From Deltaproteobacteria bacterium (GTDB taxonomy: Bacteria > Myxococcota > JADLHZ01), in NCBI GenBank assembly GCA_020848545.1, contig JADLHZ010000140.1, forward strand, positions 1 to 64,000: a stretch of 64,000 nucleotides of DNA. Direction: 5' to 3'. The number at the start of each line of letters is the position of its first letter. Position 1 is the first letter of the stretch. The notes beneath the pieces were generated by a model. The model was given only the letters and a program-made list of their open reading frames with translations. It was not told the DNA's origin and did not search any database. The translations under genes and the position numbers were made by a program. Positions 124-45,609 of the stretch are shown piece by piece.

Positions 124-2094
<1,971 letters not shown>

Positions 2095-2198
2095 CTTCGT
2101 ATCCTCAAATCACGCACGTCGCATGCCCTTGGCCGAAAAAGCGCAGGGCATGTAGCACAGTGAATTCAACTCCGCCGCAAAATAACGACTCGGCGCGT

Positions 2199-4091
2199 CT
2201 ATTTTGTTCCGCTCTCCACGCCGGGATCCGCCCGTCGTCTGGGCTTCTCCTGCTTGAGCCACCGGTTCAGCTCTTTAATCCGATGCAAGAGGGCTTGCTG
2301 CTCTGCCACATCGGGCGTGCTTAGCAAAGCCTGCTTGAGCGCTGTTTTTTCGCGCTGTCTAAGATAATGCTGGAGGCTCAAAAGTACATCTTCCACCAAG
2401 CGTTCCCGGGCTTTTTCGTCCAGATCGGGGCTGCGATCTTCGGACAGGGTCCGGGAAAAGTTGCTCGCCATCGCCTCCGAGCCGAGCGCCACCCGCATGG
2501 TCGCGAAGTCGATCGCGTCAGCATCTTCGATGCAGGACGCGACGAGCCGGCGCAGCCCTTCGTGGGAAATGAGCTCCACCGCCTTCGGCAGGGCGTCCCA
2601 CGCCGCCCGGTACTTCAAGAGCTCGAGCGTCGGCGCAAACTCGAGGCTATCAGGAGGGGTGACTTTGGGCTGTTCGGGCTCGGTCACGAGCGCAGCGGAG
2701 GGAGCGTCGCCGGTCAGCTGCGCCCAACCCTGCGATGCCGGTTTCGCCTGCGATACCGGTCGATTAGCCGTGCCACCGGGACGCCCGTCAGCGTCGGTCT
2801 TGCGCCCGAAGAAGCGCCGCAACATATCCTCTTCGATGCCCAGGCGTTGGGCGGCCTCGCGCACGTAGAGATCGCGTTCGAGCCCGGCCGGGATCTTGGC
2901 CAAGAGCGGCGCCAAGTCGCCCGCCGCTTGCACCCGTCCTTCGACCGAAGGCTGCATCAGCTGCGCCGCCTGCTGGACGAAGAACTGCACCGCCGCCGGC
3001 GCCGTTTGCACTCGCTTTTCGACCGCCTCGCGCCCTTCGCGCAGCACCAAGGTGTCCGGGTCGTCGCCGTCCGGAATCGCCACGACGTACACGGAAAAAC
3101 CGTGGGCCAAGAGCAGCTCCGTCGTCTTGCGCGTGGCCCGCATGCCCGCCGCGTCGCCGTCAAAGAGCGTATAGGCCTTCTGACTCACCCGGCGCAGCAG
3201 CGGCAGATGATCCGGCGTCACGGCGGTTCCGAGCGGCGCGATCGCCTGATCGAGCCCGGCCTGGTGCAGCGCGATGACGTCCAAGTACCCTTCGCAGAGC
3301 CAGGCGCCGCCCTTGCGCGCGATCGAGTTCTTCGCTTTCGAATAACCATAGAGCAGCCGGCTCTTCTTGAAGATCGGCGACTCTGGCGAGTTCAGATACT
3401 TCGCCGCCTTCGCGTCCGGATCGAGCACGCGGCCGCCGAAGCCGGCGATGCGATCCTTCTCGTCGTAGATCGGGAACATCACGCGATCGAAAAACCTGAG
3501 GTACATCGACTTATCGTCACGCTCGCCGACCACGCCGAGCTCGACCGCCGCGGCGACCGGCACCCGCTTCGCTTCCAAGTACGCGATCAGCGAGTCGGCG
3601 CGGCGCGGCGCGTAGCCCATCGCGAACGTTTTTGCTGTCTCTTCCGTGATGCCGCGCTTCTCGACATAGGCGCGGGCGTGCTTGGCGTCGCCGCTGTTCC
3701 ACAGCTGGTGCACGAAGAACTGATTGACGTAGTCGTTGACCTTGTAGAGCCACTCGCGCTTCTCGCGGGCCTGCTTCTCTTCCGGCGCTTCTTGGTGCTC
3801 GACGATCTCGATGCCGAGCTCTTTGGCGAGATCGCGCACGACCGTGGGAAACGGCTGGTGCTCCGTCTCCATGATGAACTTGAAGACGTCGCCCGACGCT
3901 TGGCAGCCGAAGCAATGGTAGAAGCCGCGATCGGGCATCACGTTGAACGACGGCGAGCGCTCGTTGTGAAACGGACAGAGGCCCACCCACGAGCGGCCGG
4001 TGCGCTTCAGCTGCACGCGCTTGCCGATGATCGCCAAGATGTCCGCCCGGTCGCGGACCTGCTCGATCTTGTCTTCGGCGATAGTGCCCAC
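2199..4091 (-). CDS. dnaG: DNA primase DnaG
   Basis: Primase (630 aa) that synthesises RNA primers at the replication fork. The N-terminal zinc-ribbon shows CPFHNERSPSF followed by HCFGC. The TOPRIM catalytic core shows the Glu motif in CEGYLDVIALHQAG and the acidic motif FDGDAAG. The C-terminal ~200 residues (helicase-interacting part) are divergent, which is normal for the family. It lies 10 bp after yqeY and about 100 bp before rpoD on the same strand. The ATG start gives a natural N-terminus just before the VRDRADI helix typical of DnaG. Confidence 0.98.
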   Translation of the reverse strand: MGTIAEDKIEQVRDRADILAIIGKRVQLKRTGRSWVGLCPFHNERSPSFNVMPDRGFYHCFGCQASGDVFKFIMETEHQPFPTVVRDLAKELGIEIVEHQEAPEEKQAREKREWLYKVNDYVNQFFVHQLWNSGDAKHARAYVEKRGITEETAKTFAMGYAPRRADSLIAYLEAKRVPVAAAVELGVVGERDDKSMYLRFFDRVMFPIYDEKDRIAGFGGRVLDPDAKAAKYLNSPESPIFKKSRLLYGYSKAKNSIARKGGAWLCEGYLDVIALHQAGLDQAIAPLGTAVTPDHLPLLRRVSQKAYTLFDGDAAGMRATRKTTELLLAHGFSVYVVAIPDGDDPDTLVLREGREAVEKRVQTAPAAVQFFVQQAAQLMQPSVEGRVQAAGDLAPLLAKIPAGLERDLYVREAAQRLGIEEDMLRRFFGRKTDADGRPGGTANRPVSQAKPASQGWAQLTGDAPSAALVTEPEQPKVTPPDSLEFAPTLELLKYRAAWDALPKAVELISHEGLRRLVASCIEDADAIDFATMRVALGSEAMASNFSRTLSEDRSPDLDEKARERLVEDVLLSLQHYLRQREKTALKQALLSTPDVAEQQALLHRIKELNRWLKQEKPRRRADPGVESGTK

Positions 4092-8144: not shown

Positions 8145-9401
8145 CTACTCGGAAAAGCGAGTGATTTCAGCACCTAGGCCGGCGAGCTTCTTCTCCAACG
8201 CCGCATAACCCCGGTCCAAGTGATAGATCCGGCGCACCACGGTCTCGCCCTCGGCCACGAGCCCGGACAGCACGAGCGACGCCGACGCCCGCAGATCCGT
8301 GGCCATCACGGTCGCGCCCATCAACTTCTCGACGCCGCGCACCACGGCGACATTGCCGTCGATCGTGATGTCGGCGCCGAGGCGGGTCATCTCCGGCACG
8401 TGCATGTAACGATTTTCGAACACGGTTTCGCGCACGACGGAAGATCCCTCGGCGACGGCCATCGCCGCCATGAGCTGCGCCTGCATGTCGGTGGCAAAGC
8501 CGGGATACGGCGCGGTCGTGAAGTCGATCGCCTTCAGCCGCTTCGGGCCGATCACGCGATAGCCGCCGGCCTCTTGCGTGAGCTTGGCGCCGGCGTCGCG
8601 CAGCTTGTCGGCCACGGCGCCTAAGTGCGAGAGCACGCCGCCTTCGACGAGCACGTCGCCGCCGCTCATCGCCGCGGCCGCCGCGAAGGTGCCGGCCTCG
8701 ATGCGATCCGGCATCACGGCGTGCTTCATCGGCGAGAGACCTTCGCGCCCGACGACGCGAATGTCGGTCGTGCCGTCGCCTTCGATCTCGGCGCCCATCG
8801 AGCGCAAGGCATTGGCGAGATCGACGACCTCCGGTTCGAGCGCCGCGTTGCGCAGGACCGTTTCGCCCCGGGCGAGGACCGCAGCCATCAGCACGTTCTC
8901 GGTACCCGTCACGGTGTTCACGTCGAAGATGAATGTCGTGCCCTTCAGCCGCGACGCCTTCGCTTCGACGTAGCCGTGGACGAGCGTGATGTCCGCTCCG
9001 AGCGCGGTCAGCCCCTTCAAGTGCTGATCGATCGGCCGCGCGCCGATCGCGCAACCGCCGGGCAGCGACACGCGGCATTGGCCGTAGCGTGCGAGCAGCG
9101 GCCCGAGCACGAGCACGCTGGCGCGCATCGTCCGCACGAGATCGTAGGGCGCCTCGAAGTCCTTCAGCTTGTCCGTCGCGATGCGCAGGACGCCCTTCTC
9201 ACGCTTGTCGACCTCGGCGCCCATCATCGCGAGCAGCTTGGCCATCGTGTCGACGTCGGCGAGCGCCGGCATGTTGGTGATCGTGTTTTCGCCCTCGGCG
9301 AGCAGCGTGGCGGCGATGATCGGCAGCGCCGCGTTCTTCGCGCCGCCAACGCGCACGCTGCCTTTGAGCGCCTTGCCGCCTTTGATCTTCAGTGCGTCCA
9401 T
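8145..9401 (-). CDS. murA: UDP-N-acetylglucosamine 1-carboxyvinyltransferase MurA
   Basis: First committed step of peptidoglycan synthesis, transferring enolpyruvate from PEP to UDP-GlcNAc in the cytoplasm (418 aa). It starts MDALKIKGG and shows the substrate-binding [10 protein letters not shown], the active-site loop [15 protein letters not shown] with the catalytic Cys that fosfomycin alkylates, and late motifs [14 protein letters not shown] and RAGAS-like LRASASLVL. The frame stays open 165 bp upstream into prmC, but the ATG at 9401 lies 4 bp after the prmC stop, has AAGGGG upstream and gives the standard N-terminus. Last gene of rpmE-prfA-prmC-murA. Confidence 0.97.
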
Positions 9402-9405
9402 CGCT

Positions 9406-10269
9406 TCAGGACCCCTTGGTTTTGGCTTCGAATAGGCGATCGATTCCGGCAGCGTCCTGGTGATCATGGATGCCTTCGAAACCGAGCTCGCGGGCAATTC
9501 TACAGATGGCTTCGCCTTGGCCCTTGCCGTGCTCGACGAGCAGCGTCCCACCCGGCGAGAGCACACCGCGCGCGTCCTGCAAGATCGTGCGGATCGCCGC
9601 GAGGCCGTCTGCGCCTGCGAACAACGCCACGTGCGGCTCGAACGCCTTCACATCGGGATCGAGCACGGCGTCGTTCTCGACGTACGGCGGATTCGTCGCG
9701 ATCAAAGAGAAGCGTTCGCCAAGGAAAGGCTCGAAGAAGCGGCCTTCGCGAAACGTCACACGCTCAGCGAGCCCGAGCGCCGCAGCGTTCTCCCGCGCGA
9801 CCGCGAGCGCATCGGCGCTGACGTCGGTGGCGAGCGCCGTCGCTGCGGGCAGCGCCTTCAGCAACGCGAGGGCGATCGCGCCGGAGCCGGTGCCGAGATC
9901 GGCAAAGCGCGACGGCTGCAACGCCCGTGCACGCTCGACGATCATCTCGGTCTCCGGCCGCGGGATCAGCACGCGCTTGTCCACCTTCAGGTCGATCTCG
10001 TGAAAGCCCTTCGCGCCGGTAATGTACGCGACGGGCTCGCGCGCCGCCCGCCGTTTGACGAGCGCACGAAAAGCGTCGAGCTCGGCTTGCTGCAGCGGCC
10101 TGTCGTAGCCTGTGTAGAGGTGCAAGCGAGGCAAGTTGAGGACGTGCGCGAGCAGCACCTCGGCGTCCAAGCGCGCGCTGTCGATGCCCTTCTGCTTGAA
10201 GAACGGCGCGGTCCATTCGAGCAGACGCCCGACGGTCCAGCGCTCCGGGCTGCGAGGCGGAGACGACAT
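9406..10269 (-). CDS. prmC: Release-factor glutamine N5-methyltransferase PrmC
   Basis: SAM-dependent enzyme (287 aa) that methylates the Gln of the GGQ motif of peptide release factors. It has the N-terminal helical substrate domain ([10 protein letters not shown]), the SAM-binding [13 protein letters not shown] and the catalytic NPPY motif in [20 protein letters not shown] is also typical. It sits directly downstream of prfA, which encodes its substrate, and 4 bp upstream of murA. This coupling of the modifying enzyme with its target is widespread in bacteria. Confidence 0.97.
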
Positions 10270-43800: not shown

Positions 43801-44256
43801 TCATTGCGCTCGCAGGATCATTCCCGTGCGAGCAGCGACGTCGACCGGCGTGCTGACGGCAGCGCCGCTGACGAGATCGACGTAGGACCCAGCGGGAACG
43901 CCGGGCGCGGTCTCACTGTCGTCGCCGCGGTTGAGGATGACGACGAGGTCGTCGCCTGGCGCACTCATCGCATACGCGAGCACGTCGCCGGTGGTGCCGA
44001 GCGTTTGCCGGGTGCCGCGGCGCAAAGCGCTGTGCTGCTGGCGAATGTGCGCGAGCGCCGCGATGCGCGTGCGCAGCCAAGTCTGATTCGTGCTGTAGGT
44101 GTCCCACTGCATGAAGTGGGCGTTGTCCTCCGAGGCGGTGTCTGTGGGTTCGGCGGGCACTTCGGGGCTCGTCGGGCCACCGCCAGTCGTGACGCCGCTG
44201 AGGAAGCAGCCTTCGAATGTCATGACGAGCAGCGCTAGCGCCCGGATCCGCCCCAT
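43801..44256 (-). CDS. GH13 amylase remnant (catalytic barrel missing)
   Basis: A 151-aa open frame. The N-terminal ~25 residues are signal-like (MGRIRALALLVMTFEGC). A Pro/Thr linker follows, then LAHIRQQHSALRRGTRQTL and DDLVVILNRGDD, closely resembling the C-terminal end of secreted alpha-amylase-type GH13 enzymes. The catalytic (beta/alpha)8 domain and its Asp/Glu/Asp triad are absent. A deletion joining signal and tail is the likeliest origin. Probably non-functional as a hydrolase. Confidence 0.6.
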   Translation of the reverse strand: MGRIRALALLVMTFEGCFLSGVTTGGGPTSPEVPAEPTDTASEDNAHFMQWDTYSTNQTWLRTRIAALAHIRQQHSALRRGTRQTLGTTGDVLAYAMSAPGDDLVVILNRGDDSETAPGVPAGSYVDLVSGAAVSTPVDVAARTGMILRAQ

Positions 44257-44352: not shown

Positions 44353-44664
44353 GTGGACGACCGACTCACGCACGCCGTCGAGATACTGCGAAATGCTTTG
44401 CCTGGCGTGAGGCTCGTGTACTTGTTCGGCAGCCAGGCCAAGGACCGCGCGCGTGCAGACAGCGACGTCGATCTCGTGGATCTGGCGCGGGCAAGCACCG
44501 TGATGAAGAAAGAGATCGTCGCTGGCGGACGCACGCTCTACGAGCAGAGCCCGGCAACCCGCCACGCGTTCGAAGGACAAGTCTTGTCAGCTTACGCGCG
44601 CCTGAACGAAGAGCGCCGCCCTATCTTGGAGCGCATCCGCCGTGAAGGCCGCGTCCATGGTTGA
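44353..44664 (+). CDS. MntA-type antitoxin with an internal deletion
   Basis: A 103-aa nucleotidyltransferase-fold protein. The MNT motif GSX10DXD is intact (GSQAKDRARADSDVD). Typical MntA antitoxins have ~30 more residues between the two DVDL strands, then DLRxASTV; here DSDVDLVDLARASTV joins directly, as if one DVDL copy and everything between was removed. Type VII MntA AMPylates its HepT toxin. TATAGT lies 7 nt before the GTG start. It overlaps hepT by 8 bp. Confidence 0.7.
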   Translation: MDDRLTHAVEILRNALPGVRLVYLFGSQAKDRARADSDVDLVDLARASTVMKKEIVAGGRTLYEQSPATRHAFEGQVLSAYARLNEERRPILERIRREGRVHG

Positions 44665-45068
44665 AGATGTCGTCATCAACAAGGCGAGCACCATCGAGCG
44701 AGCCATTGCGCGTTCGCGAGGAGCACGCCGGCGATCGCGAAAACCTCTGCGCGCGCCAAACGAAGCAGGACGCGATCATCTTGAACCTGCAACGCGCGTG
44801 CGAGGCGGCGATCGATCTCGCGATGCACCTCGTTTCCACCCACAGGCTCGGGGTGCCGCAGGATTCGCGCGAGGCGTTCGATCTGCTCGCTCAGCGCGCG
44901 ATCATCGACGCGGCGTTGGCCGAGAAGCTGAGGCGCATGGTCGGCTTTCGCAACATCGCCGTGCACGACTATCTGCGGCTCTCGTTGCCGATCGTGGAAG
45001 CGATCATCGCGAATGGCGTCGCCGACTTGCTCGCGTTTTCGAAGGTCGCGCTCGCGCAACCGGGGTGA
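44657..45068 (+). pseudogene. hepT toxin gene, frameshifted
   Basis: The frame from ATG 44657 gives MVEDVVINKASTIERAIAR, the HepT start. Near 44706-44714 it changes to a different frame that continues REEHAGDRENLCARQTKQDA, then NLQRACEAAIDLA and the RX4HXY motif RNIAVHDY. Adding back one GC pair to the TGCGCGTT run gives a continuous 137-aa HepT, the family's usual length. A 2-bp contraction therefore broke the gene. An unlikely short protein from TTG 44661 would lack the true N-terminus. Confidence 0.8.
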
Positions 45069-45096: not shown

Positions 45097-45399
45097 TCAG
45101 GAGAGGGGTTGGACCGCGACCTTGATCTGCGGCGGGGTTTCGCCGAAGCAGCCGTGGCTCAACTCACCGAGTCCGTGCGCATCGAGCACGGATTTCAAGC
45201 GCGAGACGAAGTGGCGATCCTGCGATGTGCTGGACATGAAGTTGCCGAGCAGCGCGTTGGCCAAGCTCACGCCCATCGCGACGAAGGGCGAGCGAACGAG
45301 CACCTCGAGCCGGGTGATGTTGGTGCGGTTGGCGATCACCCAGTTGGTCAGGGCCTCGCGTGATTGCTTGTCGTTGCGCTCCAGGGTGGACCAGTGCAA
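45097..45399 (-). CDS. STAS-like protein fragment, 5' truncated
   Basis: About 100 residues of coding sequence (HWSTLERNDKQSREALTNWV; LVRSPFVAMGVSLANALLG) resembling a STAS-like family of unknown function that I recall from myxobacteria, but without its first ~45 residues. The only available start is TTG at 45399. High GC3 shows it was coding. Its 5' end abuts another coding fragment on the opposite strand. Confidence 0.5.
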   Translation of the reverse strand: MHWSTLERNDKQSREALTNWVIANRTNITRLEVLVRSPFVAMGVSLANALLGNFMSSTSQDRHFVSRLKSVLDAHGLGELSHGCFGETPPQIKVAVQPLS

Positions 45400-45609
45400 A
45401 AGATCACGATCGCCGACATCGACGAGCCAACCAACACCATCGCCCTCGTGCAGCAGGCACACGTCGAGGAGTATTGGATGGCCCAGTGGGAGCGGCACTG
45501 GGGGGCGATCGATGTCTTGCCGCCGATGTCCACCTTCGACAAGGACGCCTGGCTGCGCGGGTTGGAGCGCGTGTATCAGCTGCAGATGATGGGCCGTGGG
45601 AAGCTCTGA
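45394..45609 (+). CDS. Short coding fragment, possibly 5' truncated
   Basis: A 71-aa acidic frame with convincing codon use (KITIADIDEPTNTIALVQQ; EEYWMAQWERHWGAIDVLPP). GTG at 45394 follows AGGGTGG. It reads away from the STAS-like fragment, overlapping its end by 6 bp. It may be a complete small protein or the surviving tail of a larger gene. No family recognised. Confidence 0.5.
   Translation: MQKITIADIDEPTNTIALVQQAHVEEYWMAQWERHWGAIDVLPPMSTFDKDAWLRGLERVYQLQMMGRGKL

What the first reader, a model, noticed from the sequence alone, without database searches (positions are those of the whole stretch)
44657..45068. hepT toxin broken by a 2-bp contraction in a GC run
The true HepT N-terminus (MVEDVVINKASTIERAIAR) lies in one frame; the rest, with RX4HXY (RNIAVHDY), lies in another. 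The two join at TGCGCGTT (44707-44714). Restoring one GC gives an unbroken 137-aa protein of family length. So one small slippage separates an intact toxin from the current state. It may be a pseudogene, a phase-variable switch, or a sequencing error.
Basis: partly seen in the sequence, partly recalled or inferred. Interest (0 to 1): 0.7.

Follow-up and report, generated by a model that had tools for sequence, protein, structure and literature searches.

The report
Decayed mntA-hepT toxin-antitoxin pair
A bacterial toxin gene (hepT) is split by a small frameshift and its partner antitoxin gene (mntA) has lost 30 amino acids from its active site, so this is a dead remnant of a very common self-regulation system rather than an on/off switch, and it is ordinary.

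Summary
The frame break in hepT is real. The family N-terminus (MVEDVVINKASTIERAIAR, from ATG 44657) and the HEPN core with RNIAVHDY lie in different frames that meet at 44707-44714, a net loss of 2 nt against the family. Homologues carry two DVDL motifs exactly 90 bp apart; here they have collapsed into one, removing 30 residues including the metal-binding Asp (D71 in Shewanella MntA). Both halves of the operon are damaged. The best reading is a decayed mntA-hepT module inside a patch of broken genes; the neighbour at 43801-44256 is a truncated alpha-amylase. Phase variation is not supported: the tract is only GCGCG, found 577 times in the window. Sequencing error is unlikely: 339 kb of this genome gave at most one ambiguous frameshift, and a 90-bp repeat collapse is not a base-call error. 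Of 81 homologues, 78 keep hepT in frame with RX4HXY. The only other clearly truncated mntA (G037) sits beside a hepT whose catalytic His is Asp. This fits antitoxin loss only after toxin death, but numbers are small.

The parts
44353..44664 (+). mntA antitoxin remnant (103 aa, start GTG 44353 inferred), nucleotidyltransferase with a 30-aa internal in-frame deletion
   Evidence: PF18765/PF01909 matches to the N-terminal half; alignment to 23 homologues shows one 30-31-column gap; GS motif to C-terminus is 78 aa here and 107-109 aa in nearly all of the homologues parsed (for the window)
44428..44472 (+). GSX10DXD motif of mntA (G, S, D39 and D41 equivalents)
   Evidence: read directly; motif as defined in PMC7641770
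44464..44476 (+). collapsed direct repeat GACGTCGATCTCG, junction of the 90-bp deletion
   Evidence: in 7 of the 8 homologues read, two DVDL-type copies lie exactly 90 bp apart; in L048 they are GACGTCGATCTCG and GATGTCGATCTCG
44657..44713 (+). hepT N-terminus in its own frame (MVEDVVINKASTIERAIAR), overlapping the mntA stop
   Evidence: aligns to the N-termini of homologues
44707..44714 (+). frame break in hepT (net loss of 2 nt against family spacing) in TGCGCGTT
44712..45068 (+). hepT core (HEPN domain) in the second frame, up to the stop
   Evidence: PF01934 1e-27; PDB relatives 5yep and 6m6u at about 4e-26
44949..44972 (+). RX4HXY motif, RNIAVHDY, unmutated
44667..44669 (+). alternative ATG in the core frame, 2 nt after the mntA stop; would give a 133-aa HepT with an unrelated first 16 residues
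   Evidence: alignment; AlphaFold model shows no regular structure in residues 1-11 and a short helix 1
43801..44256 (-). truncated secreted alpha-amylase remnant beside the operon (signal peptide joined to the C-terminal ~105 aa)
   Evidence: homologues lie in ORFs of more than 600 aa with the full catalytic domain

Best explanation
This is a decayed Class I HEPN/MNT (mntA-hepT) toxin-antitoxin operon. In its working form, MntA adenylylates the Tyr of RX4HXY in the HepT RNase and so silences it. Here hepT lost 2 nt in codons 18-19, so its proper start codon no longer reaches the HEPN core (shown). mntA lost 90 bp by collapse of two DVDL-coding repeats (deletion shown, repeat mechanism inferred), which removes the third Mg-binding Asp and a strand-helix of the nucleotidyltransferase. 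Probably the toxin died first and the antitoxin was then free to decay, because losing the antitoxin while the toxin worked should be harmful (inferred). Neither protein is expected to work now.
For: Two independent lesions of different type lie in the two genes of one operon. 78 of 81 homologous loci keep hepT in frame with RHY, so the window's arrangement is exceptional. The two DVDL copies are exactly 90 bp apart in seven homologues, matching the 30-residue gap. D39, D41 and D71 hold the Mg ions in S. oneidensis MntA, and D41 to D71 is the same 30-residue spacing (PMC7641770). The AlphaFold model of the shortened MntA lacks regular structure at residues 25-48, where DVDL lies. The only other truncated mntA in the set (L005/G037) sits beside a hepT with H to D in RX4HXY, and H102A abolishes toxicity in S. 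oneidensis (PMC4621449). The neighbouring amylase gene is also gutted.
Against: The HEPN core still has its catalytic motif and codon pattern and no stop codon, so decay must be recent. The order of events is inferred. No reads or sister strains were available. L036 keeps an intact toxin beside an MntA with one Asp (D71 equivalent) changed to His, so a weakened antitoxin does not always go with a dead toxin.
Confidence: 0.88

Rival explanations
1. Sequencing or assembly error in hepT: the cell carries an in-frame hepT, and the missing 2 nt are a consensus error.
For: The genome is a draft of 163 contigs, the lesion is small and lies in a GC-rich stretch, and the core is otherwise well kept.
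Against: A codon-statistics scan of 339 kb of the same genome found at most one ambiguous frameshift, at 53% sensitivity to simulated breaks. mntA has an unrelated 90-bp lesion that a base-call error cannot give. A live HepT beside a crippled MntA would be expected to be harmful.
Confidence: 0.07
2. Phase-variable switch: slippage in the GC tract turns HepT on and off.
For: The break lies at GCGCG, and a unit change would shift the frame.
Against: Only two and a half repeat units; GCGCG occurs 577 times in the window, and tracts of 3 or more units 257 times. Homologues do not carry a repeat tract there. The antitoxin needed in the on state is itself broken.
Confidence: 0.01
3. A shortened HepT is still made from ATG 44667 (2 nt after the mntA stop, by reinitiation), giving a protein with a new N-terminus and an intact HEPN core.
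For: The core frame is open from ATG 44667, and the AlphaFold model keeps the helical core (mean pLDDT 85.7).
Against: It loses the conserved helix-1 residues (the near-invariant Lys and the ER of IER); residues 1-6 are below pLDDT 50 and helix 1 is short. No close ribosome-binding site: the GAAGG that could serve ATG 44657 lies about 18 nt upstream of 44667 (read). No homologue uses such a start; the one similar case, L048, is broken at another place and has also lost the Tyr.
Confidence: 0.04

Closest known systems
Class I HEPN/MNT toxin-antitoxin (HepT PF01934 / MntA PF01909), type example SO_3166/SO_3165 of Shewanella oneidensis (PMC4621449, PMC7641770; PDB 5yep, 6m6u)
   Same: Antitoxin gene upstream with a short overlap, GSX10DXD in MntA, RX4HXY in HepT, HEPN core sequence (PDB match about 4e-26)
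   Different: hepT is frame-broken after codon 18-19; mntA lacks 30 residues including the D71 equivalent
mntA-hepT remnant in G037 (L005), same phylum
   Same: Closest hepT relative in the phylum (63% identity to the window core); mntA also shortened in frame
   Different: There hepT is in frame but the catalytic His is Asp, and mntA lost its C-terminal half instead
Intact mntA-hepT of an Acidobacteria MAG (L017)
   Same: Best overall match (69% identity over the core), same gene order and overlap
   Different: Both genes whole

Membership tests
Class I HEPN/MNT (mntA-hepT) TA module | HEPN toxin of PF01934 with RX4HXY | tested here: met
   PF01934 1e-27; RNIAVHDY at 44949-44972
Class I HEPN/MNT (mntA-hepT) TA module | toxin gene is one open reading frame from start to stop | tested here: not met
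   frame break at 44707-44714
Class I HEPN/MNT (mntA-hepT) TA module | adjacent MNT gene with GSX10DXD | tested here: met
   GSQAKDRARADSDVD at 44428-44472
Class I HEPN/MNT (mntA-hepT) TA module | complete MNT fold with third metal-binding Asp (D71 in S. oneidensis) | tested here: not met
   30-residue gap; residues 25-48 without regular structure in the model
Class I HEPN/MNT (mntA-hepT) TA module | RNase toxicity neutralised by adenylylation | not testable with these tools
   needs expression and assay
Phase-variable (contingency) locus | long simple-sequence tract prone to slippage | tested here: not met
   GCGCG only; 577 such in the window
Phase-variable (contingency) locus | mixed lengths in the population | not testable with these tools
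   no reads available

The most novel reading that the evidence does not exclude
Broken mntA genes occur only beside broken hepT genes, so ordered co-decay (toxin first, antitoxin second) could be read from genomes across this very common TA family. Here both clear cases (window and G037) fit, with different lesions in each gene.
Probability: 0.4. Interest if true: 0.35.

Novelty: new member of a known kind. Interest (0 to 1): 0.18.

Why it matters
Mostly housekeeping: it should be annotated as a pseudogene pair, not as a toxin one slip away from activity. The double lesion is a tidy example of how an addiction module dies. With many more loci, one could test whether the toxin always dies before its antitoxin.

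Tried and rejected
Phase variation was rejected (tract too short and too common). A conserved alternative start was rejected: 78 of 81 homologues are in frame, and the only look-alike (L048) breaks elsewhere, by a gain rather than a loss, and has also lost its Tyr. Another copy in this genome that could explain a mis-join was looked for; the DNA search found none. The second PF01934 protein of the genome (contig C14) belongs to a different, apparently intact MNT/HEPN pair. A Fisher test on 82 loci (p about 0.002) includes the discovery locus and selected hits, so it is not used as evidence. A literature search for decayed HEPN/MNT pairs found no dedicated study in the library.

Full report
Observation. 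The sequence shows ATG 44657 opening MVEDVVINKASTIERAIAR and overlapping the stop of an upstream gene. The HEPN core of HepT (VREEHAGD...MVGFRNIAVHDY...) is open in a different frame and matches PF01934 at 1e-27 from profile position 16 on. Relatives of known structure are HepT of Shewanella oneidensis (5yep, 6m6u, E about 4e-26). The genome-wide collection gave 80 relatives and the phylum search added one close one. In 78 of these 81 loci the N-terminus and core are in one frame with RX4HXY intact. Spacing between the conserved IER and the following V is fixed in the family; the window is 2 nt short there.

The second lesion. The upstream gene is mntA, the antitoxin. It keeps GSX10DXD (44428-44472) but has 78 residues from the GS motif to the end, against 107-109 in nearly all of the homologues parsed. 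The alignment shows one gap of 30 residues. In seven of eight homologues read, the two DVDL-type motifs lie exactly 90 bp apart (the eighth, L005, 93 bp). In one of them (L048) the two copies are GACGTCGATCTCG and GATGTCGATCTCG. The window has a single GACGTCGATCTCG, flanked on the left like copy 1 and on the right like copy 2. A deletion between short direct repeats explains this and also why the reading frame was kept. In S. oneidensis MntA, D39, D41 and D71 hold the two Mg ions (PMC7641770). D41 to D71 is the same 30-residue step, so the deletion fuses these two positions and removes the strand and helix between them. An AlphaFold model of the 103-aa product leaves residues 25-48 without regular structure.

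Is it an error? A seven-state codon-statistics scan of the window and 18 other stretches of the same genome (339 kb, about 290 kb coding) produced frame switches that, with one ambiguous exception, sit at ordinary gene ends with a stop and a new start codon close by. The scan found 48 of 90 simulated breaks, so the assembly is not rich in frameshifts. A 90-bp repeat deletion in the partner gene is not a base-calling error. Assembly error for hepT alone cannot be excluded without reads.

Is it a switch? The tract is GCGCG. This string occurs 577 times in 64 kb, and GC or CG runs of three or more units occur 257 times. Nothing marks it as a contingency repeat, and the antitoxin needed in an on state is broken.

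Could a HepT still be made? ATG 44667 in the core frame lies 2 nt after the mntA stop and would give 133 aa with an unrelated first 16 residues. It lacks the near-invariant helix-1 residues. The model keeps the helical core but has a disordered start and a short first helix. This is possible but unsupported.

Mechanism of loss. HepT is an RNase kept silent by AMP transfer from MntA (PMC7641770), and loss of R97 or H102 abolishes toxicity (PMC4621449). Losing MntA while HepT works should be harmful, so the simplest order is hepT frameshift first, then mntA deletion (inference). The only other truncated mntA among the homologues (L005, genome G037) lies beside a hepT whose catalytic His is Asp, which fits. 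L048 and L068 have broken hepT beside mntA that looks whole, the expected earlier stage. L068 lies on a short contig and could be an assembly error. L036 has an intact toxin beside an MntA with one Asp changed to His, a mild exception; L040's apparent truncation is an assembly gap. In the phylum, G066 holds a hepT fragment with Tyr changed to Asp and no mntA in the sequence read, and G139 has Arg changed to His, with mntA beyond the contig end.

Surroundings. The gene on the other side (43801-44256, minus strand) is a signal peptide joined to the last ~105 residues of a secreted alpha-amylase whose relatives exceed 600 aa. Downstream, two coding-like stretches on opposite strands abut at about 45390 without a gap. 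The operon thus lies in a patch of broken genes.

Verdict. This is a decayed member of a well-known toxin-antitoxin family. Interest is low.

Noticed in passing
window 43801-44256 (-): 151-aa ORF is a signal peptide joined to the C-terminal ~105 aa of a secreted alpha-amylase; the catalytic domain is missing, while relatives in the phylum exceed 600 aa.
   Followed up: partly
window 45110-45606: Two coding-like stretches on opposite strands (45110-45387 minus, 45392-45606 plus) abut with no intergenic gap, as at a rearrangement scar; no Pfam match.
   Followed up: partly
L002 (own genome, contig C14), about 1489-2311 (-): A second, different and apparently intact MNT/HEPN pair (RHFIVHNY) is present in the same genome.
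   Followed up: no
L005 1203-1870 (genome G037): hepT in frame but RX4HXY His changed to Asp, beside an mntA that lost its C-terminal half in frame: an independent double lesion.
   Followed up: yes
L048 2602-3405: Planctomycete MAG hepT also has an N-terminal frame break, at a different place and by a gain, plus Tyr changed to Asp; mntA looks whole.
   Followed up: yes
L087 and L092, 1-500: Bacillus sp. NTK034 and Cytobacillus plasmid pBO1 carry a second, frame-broken hepT about 2.5 kb before an intact one.
   Followed up: no
window 8161-10245 (-): Only ambiguous frame switch of the codon scan near 9503: the upstream ORF runs 94 nt past the switch; a possible frameshift or a long overlap.
   Followed up: no
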